The position numbers were made by a program, and so were the translations under genes. From contig JAFZFX010000043.1 of assembly GCA_017555695.1 (NCBI GenBank), positions 1-34,716 of the forward strand: a stretch of DNA of 34,716 bases. Direction: 5' to 3'. Positions 2,457-34,380 of this stretch are shown here, one piece after another. This stretch comes from Alistipes sp. Lineage in GTDB: Bacteria; Bacteroidota; Bacteroidia; Bacteroidales; Rikenellaceae. The notes under the pieces were generated by a model. The model was not told the DNA's origin, did not search any database, and worked only from the letters and a program-made list of their open reading frames with translations. Every line of letters begins with the position of its first letter. The first letter of the stretch is position 1.

Positions 2457-2652
2457 TTAGCATATATGCTTATTATTGGTAGCTATGTTAGCATATACGC
2501 TAATGAGCGTGAGTCGGATTTTTTCTGACATTGCTATCGGAATATCTCCGAACATAATAAGAATATAACATATAATAACGGGTAGGACTGTTCCTACCCA
2601 TTATTATTTAGATGACTAGAGCTTCATATATATGAATTAGCATTTATGCTAA
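2457..2652. repeat. Cluster of AT-rich palindromes with TTAGCAT arms
   Basis: Four palindromes lie between the small recombinase and the leftward 330-aa gene: TTAGCATATATGCT at 2457-2470 (12-bp perfect core), TTAGCATATACGCTAA at 2488-2503 (one mismatched pair), TTCATATATATGAA at 2623-2636 (perfect), and TTAGCATTTATGCTAA at 2637-2652 (perfect 7-bp arms). Three share the same TTAGCAT arm. They could be recombination sites, operators or replication iterons; the sequence alone does not decide. Confidence 0.6.
2573..2606. terminator. Strong hairpin, likely bidirectional terminator
   Basis: GGGTAGGA (2580-2587) pairs with TCCTACCC (2592-2599) around a CTGT loop, and the flanks TAATAA / TTATTA extend the stem after one mismatch. 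It separates the convergent genes ending at 2451 and 2668. A U-tract is weak on either strand, so termination is inferred from the stem and the location. Confidence 0.55.
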
Positions 2653-2667
2653 GTTATTATATTTTAT

Positions 2668-3660
2668 TCAGCATTTAGACTTATCACCCCCCCTTCTATG
2701 TGTTATTTTCCCTGACAGTTCATCGGGGACTTTTATGCCGTGATTTTTGAGCGCTTCCTCAATATGCTGAAGAGTATCAAAGTTAGTGCTATCGTTATTG
2801 AATAGCTTTTTATTCACATATTTATAGGCTGTGTTGTTTGAACAATTAGCAGAGTCATATTTTTCTAGTGGAGTCTCTAAACCATTTGCAATTCTCACAA
2901 CAGCCTTTTTTAATAATTTACCTATTTCTCCCTTCTTCAACTCTTGCGCCTGGCTAAAATAGTACTGAAGGGCATAGTATAAAAATCCAACAGACTCAAG
3001 CTTTGTTTGCGTATTATATGTCGGTTCATTATCCTCTTTTGACTCTGATGCAGGTTGAAGTTCTTTCAAGTATCTACCATTCAAGAACACTTTTATATAC
3101 AAGTTTTCGTTTTCTTCACTGGATTTTGAATCAATAGAATCAACACCTCTTCTAACCAGTTCATTTATAATGACTTCCCTAATCTCACTTTCCGATTTAT
3201 GATGCAATTTTGAAAGGGTTGGGATAGCATCGTACATCAAGTCTTCGAGTTTCTTAATTGGATAAAACCATCTTATATCATCAGCACTCTTATTGCCTCG
3301 TCTGGTCAGTTGATTCATCTCCAATCCTCTCACATTATCCAATACCAACCTGGCATAAGTATATCTTTGGATAAGTCTCTCGGGGGTGCACAACATCTGT
3401 GTGTATGGCAAATACACCATTACTTCAGCTTTGTCATCAATATAATCCAATCTAGATATTACCCTATCAACCAATGTTTTCCAATAATCCACCTTGGATT
3501 TTCGGAGTATGGGTTCTCTATACTTTCTACACAATGTGATAATTGTATCATAAATCTGTTCCTCCTGCTGATTGATAGCAATACCGTAAAGCAATTGATA
3601 TGAATCAAAGTGTAGGTCTCGGTATTCAGGCAAAAAGTCTGTGTCTGTAATGTATCTCAT
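2668..3660 (-). CDS. Unrecognised 330-aa protein, possible element cargo
   Basis: I do not recognise this family. The protein is soluble, helical and charged, with no signal peptide or membrane segment. A central acidic linker (SKSSEENENLY, ESKEDNEPTY, about residues 185-225) separates an N-terminal helical region from a C-terminal region containing VGFLYYALQYYFSQ and a possible helix-turn-helix (NNTAYKYVNKKLFNN). The upstream extension to a TTG at 3681 is rejected because that TTG lies inside a promoter -7 box; ATG at 3660 is the better start. It is transcribed alone, divergent from the replication block, and ends in CHHHR-free basic residues GGDKSKC. It could be a regulator or a cargo protein. 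Confidence 0.65.
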   Translation of the reverse strand: MRYITDTDFLPEYRDLHFDSYQLLYGIAINQQEEQIYDTIITLCRKYREPILRKSKVDYWKTLVDRVISRLDYIDDKAEVMVYLPYTQMLCTPERLIQRYTYARLVLDNVRGLEMNQLTRRGNKSADDIRWFYPIKKLEDLMYDAIPTLSKLHHKSESEIREVIINELVRRGVDSIDSKSSEENENLYIKVFLNGRYLKELQPASESKEDNEPTYNTQTKLESVGFLYYALQYYFSQAQELKKGEIGKLLKKAVVRIANGLETPLEKYDSANCSNNTAYKYVNKKLFNNDSTNFDTLQHIEEALKNHGIKVPDELSGKITHRRGGDKSKC

Positions 3661-7027: not shown

Positions 7028-8174
7028 ATTCTTTTTCCCATTGTTTAAGCATCTTTCCCACTTCGCTTGCAACAAAAGTATCAACGGGTCGAGCATAAGT
7101 TTTCTGTGTAATAATTGTATTTGTATGACCTAAGCACTTTGCCACTACTGAGATATTCACTCCATTATTGAGCAATGTGTGTGCATAGGTCTTTCTCAAT
7201 AGGTGTGATGTAATAACAGTCTCTATTCCCGCCAATCGCTGTATCTCCTTCAGGTAGGAGTTATATTTTTGATTAGATATGATTGGCAACCTTCCGTTGT
7301 ATTTGTCTAATATCTTCAATCCCCAAGGCAAAATAACAGTCGTAAACTGTATTCCAGTTTTCTGCCTATCGCCATTATATACGAATACACCCTCTAGTTC
7401 AATGATTCTACTCACATCGAAATTAACTAAATCGCAGTAAGCTGTACCAACAGACGCTTGAAATAATAAAAGGTCTCTAACCCTATCTAATCGTTCATAA
7501 TCAGACAAATCTAAATGTTTGATTTTATCTAGTTCATCTACAGTTAAGAACTCTACATTTGGGGTGCCTCTATCCACCTTTATCCCGTTGAATGGGTTTA
7601 TTTTTATCCAATTATTATCTATGGCGTAATGAAATATCGTTTTTATCTTTACCATATACCCAGCTGATGTAGATGGCATAAATCTATTCTTCAATATGTG
7701 ATAGATATTAACCATATCGGCATTATTAACTGTACTCACCTCTTTGGTGGGGGTTAGTATCTCAAACAGAAAATCTCTAACCAGTTCATATCTTTTATAC
7801 ACTTGTGGAACCATAGTTTTCCCCACTCGCTTCTTAATAATCCGCAGATATTCATCACATAGTTGCTCAATGGTGATACTCTTAGTGCCACCAGTTCGCA
7901 TATATTCTCTGATACAATTAGCGGTAATGGGTATCCCTTCGATTAAGAGTTGAGATATAATATTACTTACTTTAGACCTATATAGATTCAACAAATCGTC
8001 TATTTCAGCAGGTTTTCTCTTTCTATTAAATGCCTTGGGAGATAATTTTGTTGGTAGATTGATGAACAGCCTATTTTGATTTATGTTAATACACATCTCA
8101 AGAGGGGCTACACCTTGTTTGTTTGTCTTACTTTGTCTGCAATAGTAAGTGATTGAAAATGTTGTCCTTGCCAT
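7026..8174 (-). CDS. Tyrosine integrase of the left element
   Basis: The 382-aa protein has the three-domain layout of Bacteroides integrases: an N-terminal arm-binding domain (about 1-90), a SAM-like core-binding domain (about 100-195) and a catalytic domain (about 205-382). Visible catalytic residues are Lys272 (RQKTG), His324 and Arg327 (HLLRKTYAH), His350 (LGHTN) and Tyr360 (TYARP). The first catalytic Arg is replaced by Ala245 (SVGTAYCDLVNF), as in IntDOT-type enzymes of conjugative transposons. It faces left, 143 bp from the tRNA-Arg repeat at 8318, with inverted repeats between; it may integrate its element at that site. Plain ATG start. Confidence 0.9.
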   Translation of the reverse strand: MARTTFSITYYCRQSKTNKQGVAPLEMCININQNRLFINLPTKLSPKAFNRKRKPAEIDDLLNLYRSKVSNIISQLLIEGIPITANCIREYMRTGGTKSITIEQLCDEYLRIIKKRVGKTMVPQVYKRYELVRDFLFEILTPTKEVSTVNNADMVNIYHILKNRFMPSTSAGYMVKIKTIFHYAIDNNWIKINPFNGIKVDRGTPNVEFLTVDELDKIKHLDLSDYERLDRVRDLLLFQASVGTAYCDLVNFDVSRIIELEGVFVYNGDRQKTGIQFTTVILPWGLKILDKYNGRLPIISNQKYNSYLKEIQRLAGIETVITSHLLRKTYAHTLLNNGVNISVVAKCLGHTNTIITQKTYARPVDTFVASEVGKMLKQWEKE

Positions 8175-8200
8175 AACTACAAACTGTTAAATCGGTACAA

Positions 8201-8241
8201 TTTGTAGCCCATTTTTAATCTTGTAGCCATTGGGCTACAAA
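8201..8241. repeat. TTTGTAGCCC repeats upstream of the left integrase
   Basis: TTTGTAGCCC occurs at 8201-8210, TTGTAGCC at 8221-8228, and the inverted form GGGCTACAAA at 8232-8241; the last two make a tight hairpin. A further ACTACAAA lies at 8177-8184. Located between the integrase start and the tRNA repeat, they are candidates for integrase arm sites or an autoregulatory operator. Confidence 0.5.
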
Positions 8242-8317
8242 TACGGACACAAAAAAAGGTTATCATTGTATTGACAACCCTGATTTTCAGCGTTTTAACC
8301 GCATTTTGATGTGAAAA

Positions 8318-8366
8318 GTGATTCCGGCGGGATTCGAACCCACGACCCACAGCTTAGAAGGCTGTT
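8318..8366 (-). other. Left attachment site: displaced 3' fragment of tRNA-Arg
   Basis: The 49 bp are identical to 15279-15327 and cover the 3' acceptor strand, T arm, variable region and 3' half of the anticodon arm of tRNA-Arg(TCT). Beyond 8366 the sequence diverges, so there is no functional tRNA here. Confidence 0.9.
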
Positions 8367-8487
8367 ACACCCCATTTTTGCGGTTTTTTCACATTTCGCA
8401 TTTCAGCCGTAAATGATTGCTTTTCAGTCGCAAAGATAATAAATTATTTTTGATTAAATTTTGTTATTTTCACTTTGTTTTTTAATT

Positions 8488-8520
8488 TTGTGTGCAAATT
8501 GTGTGCAAATTGTGTGCAAA
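8488..8520 (+). repeat. Three tandem 11-bp repeats, putative integrase arm sites
   Basis: TTGTGTGCAAA is repeated three times without a gap (8488-8498, 8499-8509, 8510-8520). The same 11-mer recurs at 8598-8608 and at the other end of the element (15208-15218, with a 10/11 copy at 15219-15229), always in the same orientation. Confidence 0.75.
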
Positions 8521-8597
8521 TGAGCACCCGTTTTTTTGCATATAATCGGCCTCCTACGCACCTCTGAGGGGGTTTTAGTGTAAGCCGAGCAAAAAAG

Positions 8598-8608
8598 TTG
8601 TGTGCAAA
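8598..8608 (+). repeat. Isolated fourth copy of TTGTGTGCAAA
   Basis: A perfect copy of the 11-bp repeat lies 77 bp after the tandem triplet, between it and the integrase gene. It fits the spaced arm-site layout of tyrosine integrases. Confidence 0.65.
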
Positions 8609-8786
8609 TTTCCCAAAAAAATCGAGATTTTCGGCGTTTTGTGACATCTTTTGACACATTATAGGCGATTTTTCCGCCTCAACGATGATAATGCCCGCCC
8701 CGTTGAGGCCAACAAAGCCGACACCTCAACCACTGCCGGCCAACGCAAGAATATTGACACGGAATTTACGCAACAAAAACAACAAT

Positions 8787-10013
8787 ATGCTGGAATATTC
8801 AAAAGATGGTATAACAATTTCGCTATACCTTGACACTCGCAAGAGGCTGACCGATGGCCGTTATCCGCTAAAGGTGCGTATCGGCTACAACCGACACCGC
8901 AAATACTACCCAACGGGCAAGAGTTTCACACCCGCCGAATGGGAGGCGCTACCCAACACAAAGACCCGAGAGGCAACGGCTACCCGCCGAGATATTGAGA
9001 ATAGCTATAAACACATCCGAGATATTGCCGACCAACTGGCGCACGCTGGCACTTTTTCACTCCACACGCTCAATGTGCGACTGCGTGGCTCGGCCATAAC
9101 GACCATCAACGAGGCGTTCCGCAATAAGATTGCAGACCTAAAACAAAAGGGGCGTATCGGCAATATGGAAAACTACCAGTGTACGCTGAACTGTATAGAG
9201 CGCTTTGCTGGTGGATATATCCCCTACAATGCCGTAACAATCGACTGGGTAGAGCGTTATGCCGAACATCTGCGTAGTCGAGGCCTCGCACAAACGACAA
9301 TATCTATACGCCTGCGCACTCTGCGTGCCATCCTCAACGATGCAAAGGCCGTCGGCGTGATAAAAGAGGGCGAAATGCCGTTTGGTCGTGGCAAGTATCG
9401 AATACAAGAGGGTACGGGGCGAAAAATGGCTCTTTCGATGGAGCAACTGGGCGCTGTGGTGCGCTACACCGACGAGGTTAGACCCGCCACTCTGCGCTAT
9501 CGTGATTATTGGGTTTTTCTCTATATGTGCAACGGCATAAATGTTTCAGACCTTATGCGCCTACGCTACTCCGATATTGTCGGGGGCGAGATATACTACA
9601 AGCGCCAAAAGACCATCAACACAACCCGTTCACAAAAGGATATCCGTGTAGCCATCACACAACCGATGGTAGAGATAATCGAGCGCTGGGGCAACCCACC
9701 CCACCCCGACAACTTTATATTCCCACACCTCAACGGCAAAGAAACGCCATTAGAGGTGCGACGCAAGACGCAGACACTACTACGCCACATCAACCGAGCA
9801 ATGGCCTACATAAGCGAAAAGTTAGGTATAGAGCATATTTCGACCTATACCGCCCGCCACTCATTCGCAACCGTGTTAAAGCGTAGCGGAGCGAACATCG
9901 CCTATATATCCGAGTCGATGGGGCACAGTAGCCTAAAGACAACCGAAAACTATTTAGCATCGTTTGAGCAAGAGGAGCGCCAACGCAATGCCGAGTTATT
10001 AACCAAATTTTAG
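8787..10013 (+). CDS. Tyrosine integrase of the tRNA-Arg element
   Basis: Starting at the ATG at 8787 gives 408 aa; the frame is open for 34 more codons upstream but those are low-complexity and run through the end region. The protein has an N-terminal arm-binding domain (SLYLDTRKRLTDGRYPLKVRI), a SAM-like domain (about 105-205) and a catalytic domain. Visible residues are Lys275 (RQKT), Arg357 (TARHSFAT), His380 (MGHSS) and Tyr389 (TENYL). The first catalytic Arg position is Asn252 (NGINVSDL), and the His of HxxR is Tyr354, both tolerated in Bacteroidetes integrases. It is encoded just inside the left att copy and should mediate recombination at the tRNA-Arg site. Confidence 0.9.
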   Translation: MLEYSKDGITISLYLDTRKRLTDGRYPLKVRIGYNRHRKYYPTGKSFTPAEWEALPNTKTREATATRRDIENSYKHIRDIADQLAHAGTFSLHTLNVRLRGSAITTINEAFRNKIADLKQKGRIGNMENYQCTLNCIERFAGGYIPYNAVTIDWVERYAEHLRSRGLAQTTISIRLRTLRAILNDAKAVGVIKEGEMPFGRGKYRIQEGTGRKMALSMEQLGAVVRYTDEVRPATLRYRDYWVFLYMCNGINVSDLMRLRYSDIVGGEIYYKRQKTINTTRSQKDIRVAITQPMVEIIERWGNPPHPDNFIFPHLNGKETPLEVRRKTQTLLRHINRAMAYISEKLGIEHISTYTARHSFATVLKRSGANIAYISESMGHSSLKTTENYLASFEQEERQRNAELLTKF

Positions 10014-10021
10014 AGTGTATT

Positions 10022-10777
10022 ATGGAACAAATATTTGAGTGGGTAAACAAGTCAATTCAGTATATGACAGTGGCGCTCGTTGGCAAGAGCAAAGATTTTT
10101 CCGTAGCCGATTTGTTACAATCACGAAAAATGGATAGTGACAATCTGCCAATAAGCGAGTACCACCAATATACCGACTCGCTACTAAAAGCACTAATAAT
10201 CGCAGACGATGGATGCAGAAAGTTTATATTTAGGCATCTATTCGCTATTGCCTTTCCATTTTTTATTTTACGCAAATATATAGACCCGTTCAATATCGAA
10301 CTCGACGCCAAAAGGACTGACAAACTCACGCCCGACGAGATAGACAATTTGCACCGATTAATTTTCACTATCATAAACGACCTCGACCAATTTTATTTTT
10401 GGGTTCTCACATATTGCGAGCGCTGGGGCAACGATATAGAAGAATTGCTAAAAGTATGTGATAACGACGGCACACTGCGCCAAGAGGTAAACGAATATTA
10501 CAAACATTGCAGAGCGACACCTCAACCCGAAGAGCAGGCAAAATATAAGACTTTAGAGCGCACGCACCGCATTGCGATATTGAAAATATTGCTCGACTAC
10601 ACGGGCGTATCAAAGAATATCGACAAGACCAAAATAGCTGGCTTTGTTGAGGCTGTTACGGGCGGTAATATAGAGGTCAAACCGCAAGACTCCATATCGT
10701 ACAAAAAGCCGACCAAACAAGCAAATGGCGTAGCCGTCGAGTGGTTAGAGCGATTAAATATAAAGATAGATGATTGA
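10022..10777 (+). CDS. Unknown 251-aa protein following the integrase
   Basis: I do not recognise a family. The protein is helical and soluble in appearance, with a hydrophobic but probably buried stretch (RHLFAIAFPFFILRKYI, residues about 70-86). Its C-terminus, TKIAGFVEAVTGGN followed by about 35 residues ending WLERLNIKIDD, resembles the tail of small regulatory proteins placed next to integrases on Bacteroides elements. It starts 8 bp after the integrase stop and is followed by a hairpin, so the two genes probably form one transcript. A role in integration control is a guess from context. Confidence 0.6.
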   Translation: MEQIFEWVNKSIQYMTVALVGKSKDFSVADLLQSRKMDSDNLPISEYHQYTDSLLKALIIADDGCRKFIFRHLFAIAFPFFILRKYIDPFNIELDAKRTDKLTPDEIDNLHRLIFTIINDLDQFYFWVLTYCERWGNDIEELLKVCDNDGTLRQEVNEYYKHCRATPQPEEQAKYKTLERTHRIAILKILLDYTGVSKNIDKTKIAGFVEAVTGGNIEVKPQDSISYKKPTKQANGVAVEWLERLNIKIDD

Positions 10778-10790
10778 TTAATTAAAAATT

Positions 10791-10823
10791 TAGGAGCGTC
10801 CGACTATTAGTCCTACGCTCCTA
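10791..10823. terminator. Terminator hairpin after the integrase transcript
   Basis: TAGGAGCGT (10791-10799) pairs with ACGCTCCTA (10815-10823), and GACTA / TAGTC pair inside the loop. The stem lies 14 bp after the 251-aa gene and just before a new -7 box. No strong U-tract follows. Confidence 0.6.
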
Positions 10824-10830
10824 TTCGTTA

Positions 10831-10839
10831 TAGTTTTGC
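10831..10839 (+). promoter_or_regulatory. -7 promoter element for the excisionase/primase genes
   Basis: TAGTTTTGC matches TAnnTTTG(C). It stands directly after the hairpin and 54 bp before the next gene, consistent with a separate transcript for the genes from 10893 onward. A -33 TTTG is not evident. Confidence 0.5.
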
Positions 10840-10892
10840 ATTGTGGTTAATCACAAACGAGGTGGACGCACCCCATTTACTTTTAACTAAAA

Positions 10893-11267
10893 ATGCAAAA
10901 AATGGAAAATACAATTATTCTCACGACACCCGACCAGTTACAGCAGTATATCGGGCAGGCCGTTGAGGCTATCATTCCCAAACTGGCAGATTTCCGCCGT
11001 CGCAACGAGGCCAAAAAGAGCGACAACCTCACTATGTTAGAGGCCATCGACTACCTCGACGAATTAGGAGCGCCAACCACCCGTTCAAGCCTCTACAACC
11101 TTGTTTTTAGGGGGCAGATTCCGCATCGAAAAATAGGCCGTCGCACCATCTTTTCACGCAAAGAGTTGCAGGGGTGGGTCGAGAGTCGAACCGTACACCC
11201 CAACGACGCAAAAAGGGAGGCAATACAACGCATTGCAGAGAGCGCAACCCGTAAAATGGCGAGATGA
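10893..11267 (+). CDS. Excisionase-like helix-turn-helix protein (MerR superfamily type)
   Basis: In this 124-aa protein, residues about 46-100 form a MerR/Xis-like winged helix domain: TMLEAIDYLDELGAPTTRSSLYNLVFRGQIPHRKIGRRTIFSRKELQGWVE. The 'IPHRKIGRRTIFSRKEL' part is the wing and second helix typical of excisionase-family proteins. The N-terminal 40 residues are helical. It likely acts as directionality factor for the integrase or as regulator of the element. Its stop overlaps the next gene by 4 bp, indicating coupling. The second Met (codon 4) is an equally good start. Confidence 0.8.
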   Translation: MQKMENTIILTTPDQLQQYIGQAVEAIIPKLADFRRRNEAKKSDNLTMLEAIDYLDELGAPTTRSSLYNLVFRGQIPHRKIGRRTIFSRKELQGWVESRTVHPNDAKREAIQRIAESATRKMAR

Positions 11268-11590
11268 TGGGCGTAGCAACAAAAAAAGCGCCCGCCCATT
11301 GTAGCAATGAGGCCAGCGCAAACAACAATATGCGTCAAATGTTCGACAAAGATACGATTTCCTCTCTACCCCGCCAACAAAAAAGGGTATTAAATTACTT
11401 GTTAGCATCGAAACGCCCTCGCTCCGTTGCCGATATCAGCCGAGCGCTGGGGCAGTCTGACCCAAGAGGGCACATTCGCAACCTACGACTCAGAGGCTAC
11501 CCTATTGCCGACTTATGGGACACCACAAAAGAGCGTGAGCGTTTCAAGCGTTATTTTATCAGAAAGGAGGTAATAGATGGCAAACAATAG
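11264..11590 (+). CDS. Winged-helix DNA-binding protein
   Basis: This 108-aa protein has residues 37-90 (RQQKRVLNYLLASKRPRSVADISRALGQSDPRGHIRNLRLRGYPIADLW) reading as a winged helix-turn-helix, as in small Bacteroides regulators that decide on element replication or transfer genes. The first 25 residues are low complexity. Start and stop overlap the neighbours (ATGA at 11264, 14-bp overlap at the end), so the three genes from 10893 to 11867 are translationally linked. Target sites are unknown. Confidence 0.7.
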   Translation: MMGVATKKAPAHCSNEASANNNMRQMFDKDTISSLPRQQKRVLNYLLASKRPRSVADISRALGQSDPRGHIRNLRLRGYPIADLWDTTKERERFKRYFIRKEVIDGKQ

Positions 11591-11867
11591 AACTGCGAAA
11601 GGTTACGACTCGATAATCTATTATCGCCGTTGGGCTGAGTGCCTGCGCCATTTCCCCGACGATTTACGCTTAGCCATTCACGATGCAATAGACGCCTATA
11701 TAATCGACCAAGCCGAGCCGACGGAGGATATTGTGCGATTTTCTGCCTTTGCTCAAATTGTCGAGGATATAAAGTTAGACAAAGAGCGCTACGCCTCCAC
11801 TTGCGAAAAACGAGCCGAGGCAGGCCGAAAAGGTGCTAAATCTAAGCACAACATCAGTAGCAAATGA
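11577..11867 (+). CDS. DUF6291-like small protein
   Basis: The 96-aa protein has the pattern S-I-I-Y-Y-R-R-W-A-E, a helix DLRLAIHDAIDAYIID, then FSAFAQIVEDIKLDKERYASTCEKRAEAGRKGAKSK. This matches DUF6291-type proteins, usually found just upstream of replication genes on phages and mobile elements; their function is not established. A strong Shine-Dalgarno sequence (AGGAGG, 11563-11568) precedes the ATG, unusual for Bacteroidetes. The coding end reaches into a repeat-rich spacer before the primase gene. Confidence 0.7.
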   Translation: MANNRTAKGYDSIIYYRRWAECLRHFPDDLRLAIHDAIDAYIIDQAEPTEDIVRFSAFAQIVEDIKLDKERYASTCEKRAEAGRKGAKSKHNISSK

Positions 11868-11947
11868 TAGCAAATGCCACTTTTGCCAGCATTTGCCAAC
11901 AAAACTAACAAAAGTAGCAGATATGATATGTAGTGATATGATATGTA
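11860..11947 (+). repeat. Repeat-rich spacer before the primase gene, possible origin
   Basis: GCAAATGA (11860-11867) and GCAAATGC (11870-11877) are followed by the inverted copy GCATTTGC (11889-11896). Then GATATGATATGTA is repeated at 11920-11932 and 11935-11947 with a 15-bp period. Short iterons directly before a primase gene would suit a replication origin or an autoregulated operator; this is inference. Confidence 0.5.
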
Positions 11948-13029
11948 ATGATTATACAAGTAGAATAAAGAGGGAGGGTGTAGAGAGTGACACCACAAAA
12001 TCGTTGAGGTCGAGCGTGGCCTCTACGATTACCCCGACTGTTGAGGTTGAGAGTACGACTGTTGAGGCTGGCGTTGCCTGCCCGCTGAATATAGGACGAG
12101 TTTCGCTATTTTCCTCTGCTCTTTCTGCTCGTTATTGTGAGGATATAGATTTACTCTCTTTTCTTACAACAAACGAATATAGGGGCATAATAACCGAGAT
12201 AAGAGCCTCAACCGACCCGACCCACCGCCGAGAGTTGAAACAAAAGTTACCAGCCATCACGCCTGCGGGAGTATTCCACCACCGAGGCTCGGCAAACATA
12301 CTCACATACTCGGGTTTTATCTGCGTCGATATCGACGGCAAAGATAACCCCAATATCAAAGATTGGAGAGCCACAGCGCACTATATCGGCTCACTATCGC
12401 CCTGCGTGTTGTACGCTGGAGTGAGTGCGGGAGGTAGCGGGTGCTTTGCTATCTACCGTATCGCAACCCCCAATCGCTACGCAGAGCATCTGGCCTCCAT
12501 TCAGTCAGAGCTGAGCCATCGGGGCATCGTAACCGACAAGGCGTGCAAAGACCTCGCCCGCCTGCGCTTTGCCTCGTATGACCCCACACCATACATCAAC
12601 CGAGAACCAACACCCCACACTCTGCTATCGGGCGCAACCTCAACGGACAGCAACAGCGCAAAAGAGGCTACCTCTCTGCCTCAACACCCGCAGGCTGCTC
12701 AAGTAGCCGACCAAGCAAACAACTGCGAAAATAGAGCCTCTGCCCGTCCAAACACCCTACCGATAGAGAGAGTCGAGCGAGCCGTGCAGACACTCGTCGA
12801 GCGTGGCCTCAACATCGCAGAGGCGCACTACGATTGGGTGCGTATCGGCTTTGCGTTAGCCTCTACCTATGGCGAGCAGGCACGGCCTCTCTTTCACGCT
12901 ATATCGGCTCAGTCGAGCAAATACAAGCGTAACGAGTGCGACGCACAATTCACACACTGCCTGCGCTCAAAGGGCATCAATATCGGCACGCTGTTAGACT
13001 ACCTCAAACGGGTAGGCGTAAGGTGGTAA
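11923..13029 (+). CDS. BT4734-like primase with PriCT-2 domain (VirE-N family)
   Basis: The frame could begin at a GTG at 11833 inside the upstream gene, but the ATG at 11923 (368 aa) is more credible; ATG at 11938 is a further option. Residues about 55-235 match the BT4734-like domain, with SGFICVDIDGKDN (Asp136, Asp138), SAGGSGCFAIY and LARLRFASYD. A variable linker rich in S, T, Q and A follows, then a PriCT-2 domain at about 280-365 (YDWVRIGFALASTYGEQARPLFHAIS and a C-terminal IGTLLDYLKRVG). It probably primes replication of the element. Unlike the homologue at 4267 it has no helicase domain, so it would need a helicase from the host or a helper. Confidence 0.8.
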   Translation: MICSDMICNDYTSRIKREGVESDTTKSLRSSVASTITPTVEVESTTVEAGVACPLNIGRVSLFSSALSARYCEDIDLLSFLTTNEYRGIITEIRASTDPTHRRELKQKLPAITPAGVFHHRGSANILTYSGFICVDIDGKDNPNIKDWRATAHYIGSLSPCVLYAGVSAGGSGCFAIYRIATPNRYAEHLASIQSELSHRGIVTDKACKDLARLRFASYDPTPYINREPTPHTLLSGATSTDSNSAKEATSLPQHPQAAQVADQANNCENRASARPNTLPIERVERAVQTLVERGLNIAEAHYDWVRIGFALASTYGEQARPLFHAISAQSSKYKRNECDAQFTHCLRSKGINIGTLLDYLKRVGVRW

Positions 13030-13253
13030 GGCGTGGACTCACATAAGGGGTGGGGGGCATCAATTTTGAGCCGTTCCACCCCGCAAACCTCGCCCCTGCA
13101 TAAGTTTACACACACGGTATTTTTTTCAAATTTGCCAACTTTGTGAATTGCTTACAATCCACCAATAGGGGTTAGCATCAAAATTCATAGTAATTATACC
13201 ACTCAAAAAAACAAGGTAAAAGAAATTATAACAATATTTATTCCGATAAAAAA
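13030..13253. other. Spacer between primase and cargo genes
   Basis: A possible stem, GGGGTGG (13047-13053) with CCACCCC (13076-13082), follows the primase gene but lacks a T-tract. The rest is increasingly AT-rich toward the cargo promoter. No gene is seen. The composition change near 13100 suggests that the cargo pair was acquired separately. Confidence 0.4.
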
Positions 13254-13285
13254 TTTGCATTTCGCAAATCTAAAATGTATTTTTG
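13254..13285 (+). promoter_or_regulatory. Dedicated promoter of the ATPase/STAS pair
   Basis: TTTG (13254-13257), a 20-bp spacer and TATTTTTG (13278-13285) fit the Bacteroidetes promoter. Transcription would start near 13292. The in-frame ATG at 13275 lies upstream of that point, which makes the ATG at 13302 the likely start. Confidence 0.65.
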
Positions 13286-13301
13286 TATATTATTATTGCT
13301 T

Positions 13302-14189
13302 ATGCAAGGACTACAACCATATTCATTTTTGTTTAATTCAGTCAAACGCTTTGATTGGCTTAATACTATTGTGCAAGCACGAAAAGATTTGCTTGATATT
13401 CCACCCAGAGAAGAAATCAAGCTTTATTTTTCAGGATTTGAAGTAGGGAAAATGACCCCATTTCACATCGTATCGCTTGCTTGTTTAATCGAATGTATTA
13501 TACGAAGTGGCAGGCGCGTTAGAATAAAAAGTGATAAAGAGATAACAAAATATCTACAAGAAGAGTTGCAGTTTGAAAAGTATTGGGGTAAAAATGCGCC
13601 TTCTAATTTTGTGGAATCTCAAAACGATACCGTACTTAATTTATGGCGATTTGTAGATGATGAAAAGGAAGCTTATACAATGCGAATTCATCAATACCTA
13701 AAACGCCGATTCTTTGAGAACAAAGATTTAAGCGCGGTAAAAGAGAGTTTAGATGAAGCATACTATAATGTATCCGACCACGCAAATGCGGACGGCAATG
13801 CATTCTCATTCATAAAGTTTGACGAACAACAAGGCAAATTATATGTTGCAGTTTGTGATTTTGGCATCGGTATTGCCAATTCCATAAGAAGAGTGTTTAC
13901 TGATATTGACAATGATGCTCAAGCCTTATGCAAAGCTTTGGAATATAACATAACGACCAAATCTCACGAGAGAAACCAAGGAATGGGGCTCGGAAATATT
14001 AAAGATACTTGTACCGAAGATGATATATTGGGCATTATTAGTAATAACGGATGGCTACTTGCAAAAAGAGAAAATATTAGAAATGGATTACATAAAATTG
14101 ACTTCGATGGCACAATAATATATTATGAACTATCGTTGAATCATTTTGAGGAAGAAAATATACTTGACGCTTTTACATTTACTTTTTAA
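13302..14189 (+). CDS. Cytosolic GHKL-type ATPase with N-terminal STAS-like region
   Basis: The 295-aa protein (from ATG 13302) carries an HATPase domain at about 145-275: N box ESLDEAYYN (Glu152, Asn156), G1 box DFGIGI (Asp186, Gly188, Gly190) and G2 box GMGLGN (227-232). No phospho-acceptor His domain, sensor or membrane segment is present, so it is not a usual sensor kinase. Residues about 38-75 (YFSGFEVGKMTPFHIVSLACLIECIIRSGRRVRI) follow a STAS-like strand-helix pattern. It is closer in logic to anti-sigma kinases such as SpoIIAB/RsbW. The next gene encodes a STAS-like DUF4325 protein, its likely partner or substrate. The gene is AT-rich compared with the element's other genes. A role in phage or plasmid interaction is inferred from location only. 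Confidence 0.75.
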   Translation: MQGLQPYSFLFNSVKRFDWLNTIVQARKDLLDIPPREEIKLYFSGFEVGKMTPFHIVSLACLIECIIRSGRRVRIKSDKEITKYLQEELQFEKYWGKNAPSNFVESQNDTVLNLWRFVDDEKEAYTMRIHQYLKRRFFENKDLSAVKESLDEAYYNVSDHANADGNAFSFIKFDEQQGKLYVAVCDFGIGIANSIRRVFTDIDNDAQALCKALEYNITTKSHERNQGMGLGNIKDTCTEDDILGIISNNGWLLAKRENIRNGLHKIDFDGTIIYYELSLNHFEEENILDAFTFTF

Positions 14190-28202: not shown

Positions 28203-29300
28203 TTAAACATTGAAAAGGAAGTGCATAATATCACCGTCTTGTACAATGTACTCCTTACCCTCGATGCCAATCTTACCCACATCGCGGCAAGCCTTCTCCG
28301 AGCCCAAAGCCACATAGTCGGCATACTTGATAACCTCGGCACGGATGAAACCACGCTCGAAATCGGTGTGGATAACACCCGCTGTCTGCGGAGCCTTCAT
28401 ACCCTTAACGAAAGTCCAAGCGCGGCTCTCGTCGGCACCTGTTGTGAAGAATGTCTGCAGATTGAGCAACTTATATGCCGCCTTGATAAGACGAGCCACA
28501 CCCGACTCCTCAAGACCCATATCTTGCAAGAACATCTGACGCTCCTCAAAATCCTCCAACTCGGCAATGTCGGCCTCGGTAGCAGCAGCAACAATCAGCA
28601 TCTCGGCGTTCTCGTCGGCAATAGCAGCCTTTACAGCCTCGGTGTGGATATTTCCGCTAACAGCACTCTTCTCGTCCACATTGCAGACATAGAGTACGGG
28701 CTTATCAGTCAGCAAATTGAGGTCAGCAACCAACTTACGCTCCTCCTTGTCTGTCTCAACGGTACGAGCCGAACGACCCTGCTCCAAAGCCTCCTTGAAC
28801 TGCACGAGCAAGTCGTAGCGACGCTTGGCATTCTTATCACCAGCAACAGCCTGCTTCTGGCACTTACCGATGTTGTTCTCTACAGTCTCAAGGTCCTTGA
28901 GCTGCAACTCGGTATCGATAATGCCCTTATCGCGTACGGGGTCTACCGAGCCGTCCACATGAGTGATATTACCATTCTCGAAACAACGCAGAACATGGAT
29001 AATAGCGTTTGTGTTACGGATATTACCTAAGAACTTATTACCCAGACCTTCGCCCTTCGATGCACCCTTCACCAAACCAGCGATATCGACAATCTCGATA
29101 GTCGTAGGAATAACCTTCTTTGGGTTGTCAATCTCGGCCAACTTGATGAGTCGCTCATCGGGCACAGTGATTACACCCACATTGGGCTCGATTGTACAGA
29201 AAGGGAAATTTGCAGCCTGCGCCTTAGCGTTAGACAGGCAGTTGAACAGAGTCGATTTACCAACATTGGGCAGACCAACTATACCACATTGTAAAGCCAT
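28203..29300 (-). CDS. ychF: Ribosome-associated ATPase/GTPase YchF
   Basis: The 365-aa Obg-family P-loop protein has G1 GLPNVGKS, a switch FPFCTIEPN, G3 DIAGLVKGASKGEGLG and the NVDE motif in place of NKxD, which explains the ATP preference reported for this family. The C-terminal TGS domain (about 280-365) contains FVKGMKAPQTAGVIHTDFERGFIRAEV. It acts on ribosomes in stress response. A possible -7 box TACTTTTG lies at 29347-29340. Confidence 0.97.
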   Translation of the reverse strand: MALQCGIVGLPNVGKSTLFNCLSNAKAQAANFPFCTIEPNVGVITVPDERLIKLAEIDNPKKVIPTTIEIVDIAGLVKGASKGEGLGNKFLGNIRNTNAIIHVLRCFENGNITHVDGSVDPVRDKGIIDTELQLKDLETVENNIGKCQKQAVAGDKNAKRRYDLLVQFKEALEQGRSARTVETDKEERKLVADLNLLTDKPVLYVCNVDEKSAVSGNIHTEAVKAAIADENAEMLIVAAATEADIAELEDFEERQMFLQDMGLEESGVARLIKAAYKLLNLQTFFTTGADESRAWTFVKGMKAPQTAGVIHTDFERGFIRAEVIKYADYVALGSEKACRDVGKIGIEGKEYIVQDGDIMHFLFNV

Positions 29301-29413: not shown

Positions 29414-29447
29414 AAAAAATAATGGTGACGCATTTAGCATCACCATT
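29414..29447 (-). terminator. Terminator of the steroid-reductase-like operon
   Basis: AATGGTGA (29421-29428) pairs with TCACCATT (29440-29447). On the minus strand the stem is followed by TTATTTTTTG, a T-tract. It lies about 20 bp after the SDR gene stop. Confidence 0.85.
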
Positions 29448-29465: not shown

Positions 29466-30278
29466 CTATTTTTGGAACTGCATCGTAAAATTACGCAGCC
29501 AACGCATCGGCGCACCGCCCAACATCTGACACACAGGAATGAACAATCTAAACCACCAATCGGGCACCTTACAACGCTGCTTGCGGAAGAGTCCATTCAG
29601 CGAGCGGCGAGCGCAACTGTCGGGACTCATCAAAATACCCGTTTTCAAGCCAAAGCGCTGGAGCTTGGGCGAGAGACCATAGAGGTCGGTAGCGATACCC
29701 GCAGGGCAGATAGCAGTAACATACACACCCTTGTCGCGCACCTCCTTCGAGAAGGCAACCGAAAAACTCTTTAGATAGGCCTTGCTGGCGCTATACAGCG
29801 ACAAACCAGGATAGGGCATCCAGATAGAGTAAGACGACATATTGAGTATGTAACCACCCCCACGCGCCGCCATATCGGTGGCGTAGAGTCGGCACATCTT
29901 CGTAGCGGTCATATCGTGCAACAGAAGCATACGCTCGATGCGTTCAACAGGCGTAGAGAGTATATCACAGAACGAGAACATACCCGCATTGTTAATCAAC
30001 ACATCGACCTTCACACCCTGCTGCTTGGTCCACGCAAAGAGCTCCTCGGCGGCGTTCATTTCGGCCATATCTTTCACCAGATGACGCACCCACACCTTAT
30101 CACTTACTGCGCTCACTTCGCTGGCCGTAGCCTCCAACTCGGCTTGATCCAACGACACCATCAGCACATTATATCCCATAGCGGCCAGTCGCAAAGCAAA
30201 ACTGCGACCTATACCCTTCGACGCACCCGTCACGAGTGCCGTCTTCGAGCCTGGCACAACAACTCCTCTACGCGCCAT
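29466..30278 (-). CDS. Short-chain dehydrogenase/reductase, possible hydroxysteroid dehydrogenase
   Basis: The 270-aa classical SDR has the cofactor motif TGASKGIG (17-24), NNAG (96-99), the catalytic Ser149 (MSSYS) and Tyr162-x-x-x-Lys166. The C-terminal PDWWFRLFIPVCQMLGGAPMRW is hydrophobic and may bind the membrane, as in 17-beta-HSD12-like enzymes. It follows the OYE-like gene by 1 bp and the 5-alpha-reductase-like gene. In that context a 3-beta- or other hydroxysteroid dehydrogenase is likely; by itself the sequence only shows an SDR. Confidence 0.7.
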   Translation of the reverse strand: MARRGVVVPGSKTALVTGASKGIGRSFALRLAAMGYNVLMVSLDQAELEATASEVSAVSDKVWVRHLVKDMAEMNAAEELFAWTKQQGVKVDVLINNAGMFSFCDILSTPVERIERMLLLHDMTATKMCRLYATDMAARGGGYILNMSSYSIWMPYPGLSLYSASKAYLKSFSVAFSKEVRDKGVYVTAICPAGIATDLYGLSPKLQRFGLKTGILMSPDSCARRSLNGLFRKQRCKVPDWWFRLFIPVCQMLGGAPMRWLRNFTMQFQK

Positions 30279-30279
30279 A

Positions 30280-31512
30280 CTACTTGAGATTCAATTCTTT
30301 GCGTATAACATTCGGAAGCTCACCACAGTTGTGGCAGCACTTCATATCTACCGAGTACATACGGGCAATGCAGTAGTCCTTATTGTCGCATCCCGAGCGG
30401 GTTGTCATATCACCCTCACGCATCTTATTCACAAATGCAGGGTCATTAACCAGCGCGCGGGCAATCTGCACCATATCGAAACCAGCATCCAGCACGCGCT
30501 CGATACCCTCACGCGAAACGATACCACCCACATACACCAGCGGACCCTTCAATGCCGCACGGAACTTCTTGGCATTCTCCAGGAAGAAGCACTCCTCGAA
30601 GTCGTACTGCTTAATCATCCACTGGCCGAACAGCGACACCACAATCTTCTGCGGCCACTGACTCCACGGCATATAGTAGCCCATAGTTTTGGTCGGTATG
30701 CGACCACGCATCACAGCCATAGGCGCACGCGACACAAAGCCCGACGAGAGGACTATGCCATCAACGCCGAATGACTCTATCTGCTTGGCTATTTCGATTG
30801 ATTCGGGGATCTGTATTCCGCTCTTAAAACCATCCTCCATATTGTGCTTAACCAGCACAGCCATCTTGTGCTTGGCAGCCTGCTCCATCACCTCCTCGAG
30901 GCACATATTCATAAATCGCATACGATTCTCGAGCGAGCCACCGAACTCGTCCCTACGACGGTTGGTCCACGGTGAGAGGAACTGCGAAATCAGGTAGCCG
31001 TGACCAGCGTGTACCTCAACACTATCGAAGCCTGCATCGTGAGCCGTCACCACAGCACGACCGAAGTCACGAGCCATCTCTGGCAACTCACTGCGGCGCA
31101 GACGACGGTGGAATGTAGGCGAATAAAGGTTAAAGCCATTAGAGGCCGACACGGGGAAGCAGCCAGCCGTAGACCAGTGGGTCATATTACCACAGTGGCC
31201 AATCTGAACGCCCACTGCAGCACCCTCGTTGTGTACGGCATCTGTGATATCTCGCAGTGCAGGTATGATCTCGTCACGCAGCCACAACTGCGAATTGAAC
31301 GACACACCACTACGATTGACCGATGCGTAGGCTAGTGTAGTCATACCCACACCTCCACGCGCTACGCTAACATGGTAGTTCTTCAGTGCCTCGGTAGGGC
31401 CGAAGTCCTTACCCATAGACTCGAATGCTGCGGAACGGATGGTACGGTTGCGCAGCGTTACGGGTCCCATCTGGTAGGGCGTAAAGAGTTTTGAGTCCTT
31501 TAATTCTTTCAT
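30280..31512 (-). CDS. Old Yellow Enzyme family NADH:flavin oxidoreductase, BaiCD-like
   Basis: The 410-aa protein is an FMN TIM barrel: QIGHCG, VHAGHGYLISQFLSPWTNRRRDEFGGSLENRMRF and the phosphate loop YVGGI. It has C-terminal cysteines (SGCDNKDYCIAR, KCCHNCGEL) that could hold an iron-sulfur cluster, as in BaiCD and 2,4-dienoyl-CoA reductases, but lacks the C-terminal NAD-binding half of about 250 aa. It could reduce a delta-4 enone, for example a 5-beta-reduction. It lies 27 bp after the 5-alpha-reductase-like gene. The substrate is inferred from context. Confidence 0.8.
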   Translation of the reverse strand: MKELKDSKLFTPYQMGPVTLRNRTIRSAAFESMGKDFGPTEALKNYHVSVARGGVGMTTLAYASVNRSGVSFNSQLWLRDEIIPALRDITDAVHNEGAAVGVQIGHCGNMTHWSTAGCFPVSASNGFNLYSPTFHRRLRRSELPEMARDFGRAVVTAHDAGFDSVEVHAGHGYLISQFLSPWTNRRRDEFGGSLENRMRFMNMCLEEVMEQAAKHKMAVLVKHNMEDGFKSGIQIPESIEIAKQIESFGVDGIVLSSGFVSRAPMAVMRGRIPTKTMGYYMPWSQWPQKIVVSLFGQWMIKQYDFEECFFLENAKKFRAALKGPLVYVGGIVSREGIERVLDAGFDMVQIARALVNDPAFVNKMREGDMTTRSGCDNKDYCIARMYSVDMKCCHNCGELPNVIRKELNLK

Positions 31513-31539
31513 ATTTTGTTTTTGATTGCTTGCTCTTTT

Positions 31540-32310
31540 TTAGTAGATGAAGGGGATTATACGCTTGCGGCCGAGCGAAGTGAACTCCTCGCCAAACTCC
31601 TTTGCATAACGCTTATAGAGCGACGCCGAGCGAGGTGCCAGATTAGCAAATGTCCACAACACAAACACAACGCCGGCCCACGACCACGATGCTACGGCAA
31701 AACCTGTCCACTCCAGCAACTCGCCGAAGTAGTTGGCCGACGACACATAGCGAAACATACCTCCCTTTGGAATATAGTGGCGCGTATCACCCTCACGACG
31801 CAGATGGCGGATAATGTAATCCGACTGCAGATTAACGAACATACCCGCAAAGAAGAGCAGTGCGCCAACATAGATAAACGGCTTAGCGAACCAGTCGGCA
31901 TAATACCCCTCGGGGGCGATATAGAATATCCAGCCGCCCTGCATCAAGGCATTCAGCGTGTTGAATATCATACCCATAAGCACGATTCCCAACGGCATCT
32001 TCGAGTTACCGCGCATCAGCAGAGGGAAGATAAACGAGCGCTGGAAATAGTGCAACTGAAACATAGCAAACAACACCAGCGGCACTGCATCGAAGCCACG
32101 CCCCGACATAGCCCACAAGCAGCACATTGCCACAAAAACGGGCGACTCCATAAGCACCCATCCCACCTTATTAGGCACGGGAGGGCCATATCGTCTATCG
32201 AAGAGGTAGCCATATCCCGCCTCGAAGAATTGCAAGGCGACAAAGACCACTACAGCCACCACGGCCATAACCCACAAAAAGGTGTTGTAAATTGGTATAA
32301 TGTTCTCCAT
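31540..32310 (-). CDS. Steroid 5-alpha-reductase family membrane enzyme
   Basis: The 256-aa multi-span membrane protein has the PF02544-type C-terminus: FRYVSSANYFGELLEWTGFA, then FANLAPRSASLYKRYAKEFGEEF and ending IPFIY, the same pattern as human SRD5A1. About six to seven hydrophobic segments are visible. These enzymes use NADPH to reduce a delta-4-3-oxo steroid to the 5-alpha product. It is the first gene of a three-gene operon with OYE-like and SDR genes. A matching promoter lies just upstream. Confidence 0.85.
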   Translation of the reverse strand: MENIIPIYNTFLWVMAVVAVVVFVALQFFEAGYGYLFDRRYGPPVPNKVGWVLMESPVFVAMCCLWAMSGRGFDAVPLVLFAMFQLHYFQRSFIFPLLMRGNSKMPLGIVLMGMIFNTLNALMQGGWIFYIAPEGYYADWFAKPFIYVGALLFFAGMFVNLQSDYIIRHLRREGDTRHYIPKGGMFRYVSSANYFGELLEWTGFAVASWSWAGVVFVLWTFANLAPRSASLYKRYAKEFGEEFTSLGRKRIIPFIY

Positions 32311-32333
32311 CTGATATTTTCCGTTTAAGTTTA

Positions 32334-32366
32334 CAAAGGTACTAAAATAAATATAAATAGCCCAAA
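32334..32366 (-). promoter_or_regulatory. Promoter of the 5-alpha-reductase-like operon
   Basis: TTTG (32366-32363), a 21-bp spacer and TACCTTTG (32341-32334) fit the Bacteroidetes consensus. The predicted start near 32327 leaves a leader of about 17 nt before the ATG at 32310. Confidence 0.55.
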
Positions 32367-32581: not shown

Positions 32582-33436
32582 TTACTTCTTCTTTACGAAC
32601 TTAGCGTTACCGAGGTACTGTGCGCTCTCGCCAACACCCTCCCACATACGAGCCAAACGAGCCTCGTGTGAGTTACCAGGAGCACCCTCCTGCTCAACTA
32701 CGAAATCCTTGTAACCGTTCTTATAGAACTGCTTGAAGATAGCCTCGAAGTTGATCTTGCCGCTTGCACCAATTACGAAATCGTCCTTGATGTGGAGCAT
32801 CTTGATACGATCGGGATACTGCTGGAGGTAAGCAACGGGATCCTTACCACCACGAGTTGTCCAATATACATCCATCTGGAAGAATACATACTCGGGATTT
32901 GTGTTCTCGATCATATACTCCCAAACACACTGACCCTCGCGTACCTCATACTCGTGAGCGTGGTTGTGGTAACCGAGCATAATGCCATACTCCTTACCGA
33001 GCTTACCAACCTTGTTGAAGTAGTCGCAAACCTGCTTCAAGTAGTTCAAGTCGTTACCCAAACCGAAACCAGGGATAACGCAGTACTTAGCGCCCATAGT
33101 CTTCAAACCCTCGAAAACCTTGCGCCACTGTGCCATAACAGCAGCCTCGTTGTTGGGATCCATACCGATTGAAGTGTGAGTAGAAACAATCTCCAAACCG
33201 TACTTGTCGCACAAAGCCTTGAATGCAGCAGCCTCAAGACCGAAGCAGTTGGGGCTACCCAAAGTCTCAACTACAGTGTAACCTGCATCAGCAACCTTCT
33301 TCAATGAAGCCTCAACATTGCCCATATCCTGGTGGATAGAGTAAAGCTGCAAGCCTACACGCTTCTTTGACTTCGCCTCAACGAAGTTAGGCATAGCAAT
33401 CAACGCTGCCATCACAAGAAATAAAATCTTCTTCAT
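32582..33436 (-). CDS. Secreted sugar-phosphate isomerase/epimerase-like TIM-barrel protein
   Basis: From the ATG at 33436 the protein is 284 aa with a clear type I signal peptide (MKKILFLVMAALIAMPNFVEA). The rest matches the xylose isomerase-like TIM barrel (PF01261 type): GLQLYSI, ETLGSPNCFGLEAAAFKALCDKYGLEIVSTH, GYHNHAHEYE, FQMDVYWTTRGGKDPVAYL and a closing VVEQEG, giving the usual Glu/Asp/His metal ligands. It would act in the periplasm on a sugar or sugar derivative. A longer frame from 33502 is rejected because it puts 22 residues before the signal peptide. It is paralogous to the gene at 33490. Confidence 0.85.
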   Translation of the reverse strand: MKKILFLVMAALIAMPNFVEAKSKKRVGLQLYSIHQDMGNVEASLKKVADAGYTVVETLGSPNCFGLEAAAFKALCDKYGLEIVSTHTSIGMDPNNEAAVMAQWRKVFEGLKTMGAKYCVIPGFGLGNDLNYLKQVCDYFNKVGKLGKEYGIMLGYHNHAHEYEVREGQCVWEYMIENTNPEYVFFQMDVYWTTRGGKDPVAYLQQYPDRIKMLHIKDDFVIGASGKINFEAIFKQFYKNGYKDFVVEQEGAPGNSHEARLARMWEGVGESAQYLGNAKFVKKK

Positions 33437-33489
33437 AATTAATAGTTTTAATAGTTTGTTAATGTTTTTTAGACAAATTTTCCCATAGA

Positions 33490-34380
33490 TTAATACTCGC
33501 AAGAGCGAACAAAGTCAGACTCCTGCAAGAACTTGTTGCAGTCGGCAATACCCTGCCACATTGCGGCCAGATTGCGCTCGTTTGCGGCAGCATCCTCGCC
33601 AATCTCGAAAGGCAACTCATACTCCACGAAGCAGTCGATAGCGCCGTTAGCGTAGAATGTCTCGAACACCTGCTTGAAATCAACATCACCACTTGAGCCC
33701 AATACGCCCTCATCCTTCGCGTGCAACACCTTGATGCGGTCGCCGTAGGTCTTGAGGTAGTGCATAGGATCTACATCGCCCATATTGGTCTTGCAAACAT
33801 CCAACTCGATAAAGAACTTATCGGCATCGGTGTGAGCAATAACAAAATCGAGGATAGTCTGACCCTCAATCTGATTGAAGTCACCCTTGTGATTGTGGTA
33901 ACCGAACATCAAGCCATACTCCTTTGCTACTACACCCACCTGGTTGATGAATGCACAGCAAGCCTCCATCTCGGCCAATGTTGAGCCGAAGCTCATACCA
34001 GGGATAACGCAATACTTTGCACCCATAGTCTGCAGACCCTCGAACAACTTACGCCAATCGGCCATATTGCCCTCTAAGTCGGCGGGGTTATAAGGTACTA
34101 CAGCGTGAGTAGATGCGATACGCAAACCATACTTGTCGCACAAAGCCTTGAAATCAGCAGCCTCGAGGCCAAAGCAAGTAGGACCACCGAGAGTCTCAAC
34201 TGCTGTGTAACCTGACTCTGCAACCTTGGCCAATGTAGCCTCGATGTCGCTGTAAGCTTGACGAGCAGAATAGAGCTGAATACCAGCCTGCTTCTTCTCG
34301 ACAATCTCAGTCTGAGTGCAACTGCACATAACAGACACGGCTGCGATAAAAGTCATCGCCAGTGAAAAAAATCTCTTCAT
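33490..34380 (-). CDS. Lipoprotein sugar isomerase/epimerase-like TIM-barrel protein
   Basis: The 296-aa paralog of the next gene shares the same blocks (GIQLYSA, ETLGGPTCFGLEAADFKALCDKYGL, GYHNHKGDFN, FIELDVCKTNMGDVDP, VEYELP). Its N-terminus differs: MKRFFSLAMTFIAAVSVMCSC is a lipoprotein-type signal, with Cys21 the likely lipidated residue. It may be anchored while its partner is soluble. The pair is separated by 53 bp and is probably one operon. Conserved metal ligands are kept in both copies. Confidence 0.85.
   Translation of the reverse strand: MKRFFSLAMTFIAAVSVMCSCTQTEIVEKKQAGIQLYSARQAYSDIEATLAKVAESGYTAVETLGGPTCFGLEAADFKALCDKYGLRIASTHAVVPYNPADLEGNMADWRKLFEGLQTMGAKYCVIPGMSFGSTLAEMEACCAFINQVGVVAKEYGLMFGYHNHKGDFNQIEGQTILDFVIAHTDADKFFIELDVCKTNMGDVDPMHYLKTYGDRIKVLHAKDEGVLGSSGDVDFKQVFETFYANGAIDCFVEYELPFEIGEDAAANERNLAAMWQGIADCNKFLQESDFVRSCEY

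What the first reader, a model, noticed from the sequence alone, without database searches (positions are those of the whole stretch)
29466..32366. Steroid/bile-acid reductase-like operon: SRD5A-like, OYE (BaiCD-like) and SDR
Three adjacent leftward genes, with gaps of 27 and 1 bp, one promoter and one terminator, encode a 5-alpha-reductase family membrane enzyme (NYFGELLEW, NLAPRS, IPFIY), an OYE-type flavoprotein with a cysteine cluster, and an SDR with a hydrophobic tail. Gut Bacteroidales such as Parabacteroides merdae and Odoribacteraceae have clusters of the same three families that convert 3-oxo-delta-4 bile acids into allo- and iso-allo- products. The OYE here is short, without the NAD-binding half of BaiCD.
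Basis: partly seen in the sequence, partly recalled or inferred. Interest (0 to 1): 0.72.

Follow-up and report, generated by a model that had tools for sequence, protein, structure and literature searches.

The report
Gut-bacterial steroid A-ring reductase operon
An uncultured Bacteroidales bacterium carries a three-gene operon of the kind that related gut bacteria use to change the ring geometry of bile acids; it belongs to a known class, but its third enzyme differs from the one in the best-studied species.

Summary
In detail: three leftward genes at 29466-32310, gaps 27 and 1 bp, a Bacteroidota-type promoter-like site ending at 32366 and a terminator-like hairpin behind. They encode an SRD5A-family membrane reductase (5AR), a 410-aa Old Yellow Enzyme (OYE) and a classical SDR. 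The trio is conserved in the window's genus, and 5AR with OYE directly downstream is widespread in Bacteroidales: 80 of the 80 named loci kept by a capped scan, and 37 of 45 genomes holding both in an order sample of 393. I identified a Parabacteroides merdae genome; in that species disruption of 5AR is reported to stop allo-bile-acid formation. Its 5AR and OYE are adjacent and 58% and 59% identical to the window's. So this is a new member of a known kind. Two corrections: (1) the OYE is not a shortened BaiCD but a family of its own with four invariant cysteines; (2) the SDR is a different family (SDR1) from the SDR beside the pair in P. merdae (SDR2), which I did not find in 17 genomes of the window's genus, so calling it the 3-beta-HSDH has no support. 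Substrate and stereochemistry are untested. Most open: whether SDR1-only operons give a different end product.

The parts
31540..32310 (-). 5AR: SRD5A/Steroid_dh-family membrane steroid 5-alpha-reductase (P0003, 256 aa), first gene of the operon
   Evidence: PF02544 145.8 bits; aligns over residues 11-255 with PDB 7c83 (1.1e-51) and 19-256 with SRD5A2 7bw1 (4.8e-39); E55 and Y88 match SRD5A2 E57 and Y91, R171 and R227 match R171 and R227, all invariant in 134 of 134 aligned proteins
30280..31512 (-). OYE: FMN-type Old Yellow Enzyme family protein, 410 aa, with C107 and C375-x5-C381-x10-C392; candidate 5-beta-reductase/dehydrogenase
   Evidence: PF00724 185 bits; H168/H171/Y173 align with the HAAHGY stretch of YqjM and, like C107, C375, C381, C392, are invariant in 128 of 128
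29466..30278 (-). SDR1: classical short-chain dehydrogenase (270 aa), third gene; probably acts on a steroid hydroxyl/keto group, position unknown
   Evidence: PF00106 140.5 bits; T17, G18, G22, G24, S149, Y162, K166 invariant in 25 of 25 SDR1 proteins aligned
32334..32366 (-). Bacteroidota-type promoter-like site TTTG-N21-TACCTTTG, 23 bases before the 5AR start codon
   Evidence: the consensus is recalled, not from a call
29421..29447 (-). terminator-like hairpin, 11 pairs, followed by a T-run, 18 bases after the SDR stop codon
   Evidence: 4 such sites found, 4.4 expected by shuffling

Best explanation
The operon sets or inverts the A/B-ring geometry of 3-keto steroids, most likely bile acids that reach a gut Bacteroidales. 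The membrane 5AR reduces the C4-C5 double bond of a 3-oxo-delta4 steroid with NADPH from the alpha face, giving the flat 5-alpha (allo) form. The OYE handles the same bond on the beta side: it either oxidises 3-oxo-5-beta steroids to the delta4 intermediate that feeds 5AR, or reduces delta4 to 5-beta. The SDR then interconverts a keto group and a hydroxyl, most likely at C3. Shown here: gene order, conservation, families, catalytic residues, homology of 5AR and OYE with the adjacent P. merdae pair. From the literature: 5AR activity in P. merdae. Inferred: substrate, direction of the OYE, metal or Fe-S binding by its cysteines, position and stereochemistry of the SDR reaction.
For: In a sample of 393 Bacteroidales genomes 47 have a gut-type 5AR (over 330 bits, my cut), 54 the OYE (over 420 bits, my cut), 45 both, of which 37 adjacent in this order. 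Genome G818, identified as P. merdae by its beta-glucuronidase (see the full report), has 5AR and OYE side by side, 58.3% and 59.1% identical to the window's. PMC10382948 (passages): disruption of 5AR in P. merdae prevented alloLCA derivatives; the 5AR gene is clustered with a predicted 3-beta-HSDH and a NADH:flavin oxidoreductase hypothesised to be a 5-beta-reductase. G807, taken as P. distasonis, gave no 5AR or OYE, in agreement with PMC6069880 on 5AR (passages). Residues matching E57 and Y91 are present; mutating these compromised or essentially abolished SRD5A2 activity (PMC7591894, passages). The window's genome has two CBAH-family (bile-salt-hydrolase-like) genes.
Against: No activity is known to me for any member of this genus. 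The SDR is not of the family found in the P. merdae cluster. CBAH genes were found in only 6 of 12 window-genus genomes searched, so the operon is not tied to them, and that family has other substrates. OYE with SDR1 but no adjacent 5AR occurs in L104, L121, L139 and L141, so the OYE can serve without an adjacent 5AR. In 8 of 45 order-sample genomes with both, 5AR and OYE are not adjacent. The conserved NADP residues are general to SRD5A relatives and do not show the substrate (PMC7591894).
Confidence: 0.62

Rival explanations
1. Same chemistry, but the natural substrate is not a bile acid: steroid hormones or dietary sterol-derived 3-keto-delta4 steroids are reduced as an electron sink, 5AR and OYE giving 5-alpha and 5-beta products in parallel.
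For: In the SRD5A family the NADP site is conserved while the substrate pocket varies (PMC7591894, passage), so the residues I tested do not show the substrate; another OYE-family enzyme, of Clostridium innocuum, reduces progesterone (PMC12238238, passages); 6 of 12 window-genus genomes searched gave no CBAH gene.
Against: 5AR of P. merdae, 58.3% identical, is reported to be needed for alloLCA derivatives from 3-oxo-delta4-LCA (PMC10382948, passages). The two uses need not exclude each other.
Confidence: 0.25
2. The operon acts not on host steroids but on an enone in the bacterium's own lipids or quinones.
For: The OYE-SDR1 pair occurs without an adjacent 5AR in L104, L121, L139 and L141, and more distant 5AR relatives (250 bits or less) occur in further Bacteroidales genomes.
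Against: Patchy occurrence (gut-type 5AR in 47 of 393 order genomes; not found in G807) argues against a housekeeping role; the reported P. merdae mutant points to steroids (PMC10382948, passages).
Confidence: 0.1

Closest known systems
5AR - flavin oxidoreductase - HSDH cluster of gut Bacteroidota (Parabacteroides merdae and others; Sato et al. 2021, known here only through PMC10382948 and other citing papers)
   Same: Homologous, adjacent 5AR and OYE in the same order; one SDR behind them
   Different: P. merdae has SDR2 (23.5% to the window's SDR) and no SDR1 in the cluster; upstream of it lie a response-regulator-type gene and an RND efflux set; the window has SDR1 and other neighbours
BaiCD (NF041087), clostridial bile-acid flavoenzyme
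   Same: FMN-type OYE barrel; residues 8-263 align
   Different: No second half (410 against 642 positions); 179.7 bits against a cut-off of 825; cysteine spacing differs (BaiCD/DCR spacing recalled)
Human SRD5A2 (7bw1) and the bacterial 5-alpha-reductase 7c83
   Same: Near whole-length alignment, catalytic Glu and Tyr, NADP arginines
   Different: SRD5A2 Y178 is H178 here (H in 128 of 129 of the gut clade); H231 is L231
BaiP/BaiJ, bile-acid 5-alpha-reductases of Firmicutes (PMC9645264, passages)
   Same: Same reaction proposed
   Different: FAD-dependent oxidoreductases, reported as different from the membrane 5-alpha-reductases of Bacteroidetes

Membership tests
SRD5A / Steroid_dh (PF02544) | Score over the curated cut-off | tested here: met
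   145.8 bits against 22.6
SRD5A / Steroid_dh (PF02544) | Catalytic Glu and Tyr, NADP-binding Arg | tested here: met
   E55, Y88, R171, R227, invariant in 134 of 134
SRD5A / Steroid_dh (PF02544) | Seven transmembrane helices | tested here: inconclusive
   6 hydropathy segments over 1.6, two of them overlapping; near whole-length alignment to solved structures; no model obtained
SRD5A / Steroid_dh (PF02544) | 5-alpha reduction of a 3-oxo-delta4 steroid | not testable with these tools
   needs an assay
Old Yellow Enzyme (PF00724) | FMN barrel with His pair and active-site Tyr | tested here: met
   185 bits against 27; H168, H171, Y173 in 128 of 128
BaiCD (NF041087) | Score over the equivalog cut-off | tested here: not met
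   179.7 bits against 825; all 50 members of A3 match the model at E <= 0.001, but bit scores were shown only for the window's protein
BaiCD (NF041087) | C-terminal FAD/NAD(P)H-binding half | tested here: not met
   410 aa; 128 relatives 392-442 aa; no further Pfam domain beyond a weak His_biosynth match
Bacteroidota allo-bile-acid cluster | Adjacent 5AR and OYE homologous to those of P. merdae | tested here: met
   58.3% and 59.1% identity, same order, one clade in the 5AR tree
Bacteroidota allo-bile-acid cluster | Same SDR family as beside the P. merdae pair | tested here: not met
   23.5% to SDR2 against 45.7% to SDR1 of L117; best SDR2-profile hit in 17 window-genus genomes 72.3 bits against 273.1 in G025
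Bacteroidota allo-bile-acid cluster | Formation of allo or iso-allo bile acids | not testable with these tools
   needs an assay
3-beta-HSDH | SDR with catalytic Ser-Tyr-Lys | tested here: met
   S149, Y162, K166; common to classical SDRs, so weak
3-beta-HSDH | Specific similarity to known hydroxysteroid dehydrogenases | tested here: inconclusive
   best solved relatives are assorted SDRs, first 6zdz 'alcohol dehydrogenase' and 4bmv; two 17beta-HSD sequences (3is3, 3itd) are among the 60 listed, lower down

The most novel reading that the evidence does not exclude
Bacteroidales steroid operons come in forms that differ in their SDRs (SDR1 only, SDR2 only, both, or neither seen), so that organisms with the same 5AR and OYE release different stereoisomers at C3 or elsewhere; the window's SDR1-only form makes a product other than iso-allo. 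The OYE would be a separate family without the FAD half that uses a metal or Fe-S site on C375/C381/C392 (perhaps with C107) and an outside electron carrier, running as a 5-beta-dehydrogenase that feeds 5AR.
Probability: 0.25. Interest if true: 0.55.

Novelty: new member of a known kind. Interest (0 to 1): 0.33.

Why it matters
IsoalloLCA is reported to act on regulatory T cells (PMC11271093, passages) and to inhibit Gram-positive pathogens including C. difficile (PMC10382948, passages). Knowing which uncultured Bacteroidales carry the operon, and which SDR goes with it, tells which products to look for. The SDR1/SDR2 split gives a direct test of what decides the final stereochemistry.

Tried and rejected
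Rejected: a truncated BaiCD (128 full-length relatives have this length and the same cysteines). Rejected: the SDR as orthologue of the SDR beside the P. merdae pair. Rejected: a chance cluster. Checked and dropped: the in-frame TGA that one search reported in the distant OYE of G099 is its ordinary end stop; the other rows with a TGA (G295, G169, G825) were not looked at. Not obtained: a structure model of the OYE, so the geometry of the cysteines is unknown; the machine was busy at each of 11 tries. Sato et al. 2021 and Li et al. 2021 are not held (the DOI of Li et al. is recalled); I know their results only from citing papers, seen as passages. One search found no paper with 3 of its 4 terms and none with 4 of its 5; I make no claim that the SDR1/SDR2 split is not in print. 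I could not tell which genomes are Odoribacter, nor name the window's genus: the nearest named record is L102, 'Rikenellaceae bacterium isolate SIG176', which falls in the genus clade of the 5AR tree. The bit cuts (330 for gut-type 5AR, 420 for OYE) were mine, set after seeing the gap in the scores; 5AR rows of 250 bits or less, and G172, whose OYE lies in two contig-end pieces, are not among the 45. A phylum-wide sample gave the 5AR in only 8 of 395 genomes, the window's own and two Bacteroidales included.

Full report
What is there. The minus strand of 29466-32310 holds three genes in the order 5AR, OYE, SDR with gaps of 27 and 1 bp. A hairpin with a T-run follows the SDR (no more such sites in the region than expected). 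The neighbours are a YchF-type GTPase gene (28203-29300) and two xylose-isomerase-like TIM-barrel proteins (32582-34380), neither of steroid type.

The 5AR. PF02544 scores 145.8 bits. The protein aligns with the bacterial structure 7c83 and with human SRD5A2 7bw1 over nearly its whole length. SRD5A2 E57 and Y91, which are proposed to polarise the C3 carbonyl and whose mutation compromised (E57Q) or essentially abolished (Y91F) activity (PMC7591894, passages), are E55 and Y88 here. These, with R171 and R227, are invariant in 134 of 134 aligned proteins, the window's and five distant ones included.

The OYE. PF00724 scores 185 bits. The best NCBIfam model is BaiCD, but at 179.7 bits against a cut-off of 825, best stretch residues 8-263. 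Of 133 OYEs found in my loci I aligned 128 (4 cut by contig ends and L076 with a short frame left out); they are 392-442 aa long and all have C107, C375, C381 and C392 beside the active-site H168, H171 and Y173. C396 is kept in 75 of 128. It is therefore a family of its own. A metal or Fe-S site on the C-terminal cysteines is plausible, but the Fe-S relatives DCR and BaiCD use four cysteines with other spacing (recalled), and no model could be made, so the site is a proposal. How a protein without the FAD half gets or gives electrons is open.

The SDR. A classical SDR with the S-Y-K triad, invariant in 25 of 25 SDR1 proteins aligned. The best solved relatives are assorted SDRs; two 17beta-HSD sequences appear lower in the list.

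Conservation. In the window's genus 21 of 24 other genomes searched have the 5AR; the three without are 72-85% complete. I read 18 loci of the 22 genomes with a match, own included: OYE follows 5AR in 18 of 18 (two of them cut by contig ends) and an SDR follows in the 16 with room on the contig. In an even sample of 393 Bacteroidales genomes 45 of 47 with a gut-type 5AR have the OYE, 37 of the 45 side by side in this order; 9 of 54 OYE genomes lack a gut-type 5AR. Genomes are related, so the Fisher p of 1.6e-47 overstates independence. A phylum sample had the 5AR in 8 of 395.

Link to the characterised cluster. The genus of G313 and G129 contains G807, with a 100% match to a 111-residue piece of PDB 3l23 (organism recalled as P. 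distasonis), and G818, whose 826-aa GH2 protein is printed as identical from residue 19 to the end with 6d7j/6dxu. I take that structure as the P. merdae beta-glucuronidase: a paper of that title was seen in a reference list, the link to the entry code is recalled. G818 has 5AR-OYE-SDR2 in a row. Upstream lie a gene with a Trans_reg_C domain (response-regulator domain just under its cut-off) and an RND set: AcrB-type, HlyD-type and outer-membrane efflux proteins. G807 gave neither OYE (E <= 1e-80) nor 5AR (E <= 1e-20); in that genus 32 of 38 genomes have the OYE and 20 of 38 the 5AR. PMC6069880 (passages) had noted the 5AR gene in all its chicken-caecum Bacteroidetes except P. distasonis and two Odoribacter. 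PMC10382948 (passages) reports that disruption of the P. merdae 5AR prevented alloLCA derivatives and that the flavin oxidoreductase beside it is a hypothesised 5-beta-reductase. In the 5AR tree (quick method, SH-aLRT only) the window and P. merdae fall in one clade of 55 of 62 rows with support 99, apart from five distant relatives and the two PDB rows; branching inside the clade is poorly resolved.

Two SDR families. Several loci have 5AR-OYE-SDR1-SDR2 (L096, L111, L112, L114-L117, L120, L130, L132); P. merdae and near kin (L109, L123-L125) have SDR2 only; the window has SDR1 only; many named loci close to Cryptobacteroides show no SDR1 behind the pair. The window's SDR is 45.7% identical to SDR1 of L117 and 23.5% to P. 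merdae SDR2. A profile of SDR2 scores 273.1 bits in G025 but at most 72.3 bits in 17 window-genus genomes, own included, which is general SDR similarity; the remaining genomes of the genus were not searched for it. OYE-SDR1 without an adjacent 5AR occurs in L104, L121, L139 and L141, so this pair is separable from 5AR.

Bile exposure. CBAH-family (bile-salt-hydrolase-like) genes were found in 6 of 12 window-genus genomes searched, two in the window's own; in G014 one lies beside an SDR gene. This fits a bile habitat, but half the genomes lack them and the family has other substrates.

Verdict. A new member of a known kind: the 5AR step is well supported, the OYE step plausible, the SDR step open.

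Noticed in passing
window 32582-34380, minus: Two tandem xylose-isomerase-like TIM-barrel proteins (PF01261), 46.5% identical to each other, just upstream of the operon; solved relatives of the first include 8tct and 3l23.
   Followed up: partly
L152 (G014) 1205-1996 and 2071-3183: An SDR gene directly before a CBAH (bile-salt-hydrolase-like) gene in a window-genus genome; beside the two CBAH genes of the window's own genome (L153 5328-6398, L154 5257-6324) no SDR was seen.
   Followed up: partly
L123 (P. merdae) 7506-14119: A transcription-regulator gene and an RND efflux set (AcrB-, HlyD- and OEP-type) lie upstream of 5AR-OYE-SDR2; a possible link of steroid conversion to sensing or efflux.
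   Followed up: partly
L104, L121, L139, L141: OYE-SDR1 pairs without an adjacent 5AR. The genomes of L104, L139 and L141 have a distant-type 5AR on another contig; that of L121 (G313) gave no 5AR. Suggests an older two-gene unit.
   Followed up: partly
G025, G027, G144, G242, G323, G387: Gut-type 5AR genes on other contigs than the OYE; G025 and G144 have two 5AR copies, and G025 gave no OYE at E <= 1e-30.
   Followed up: partly
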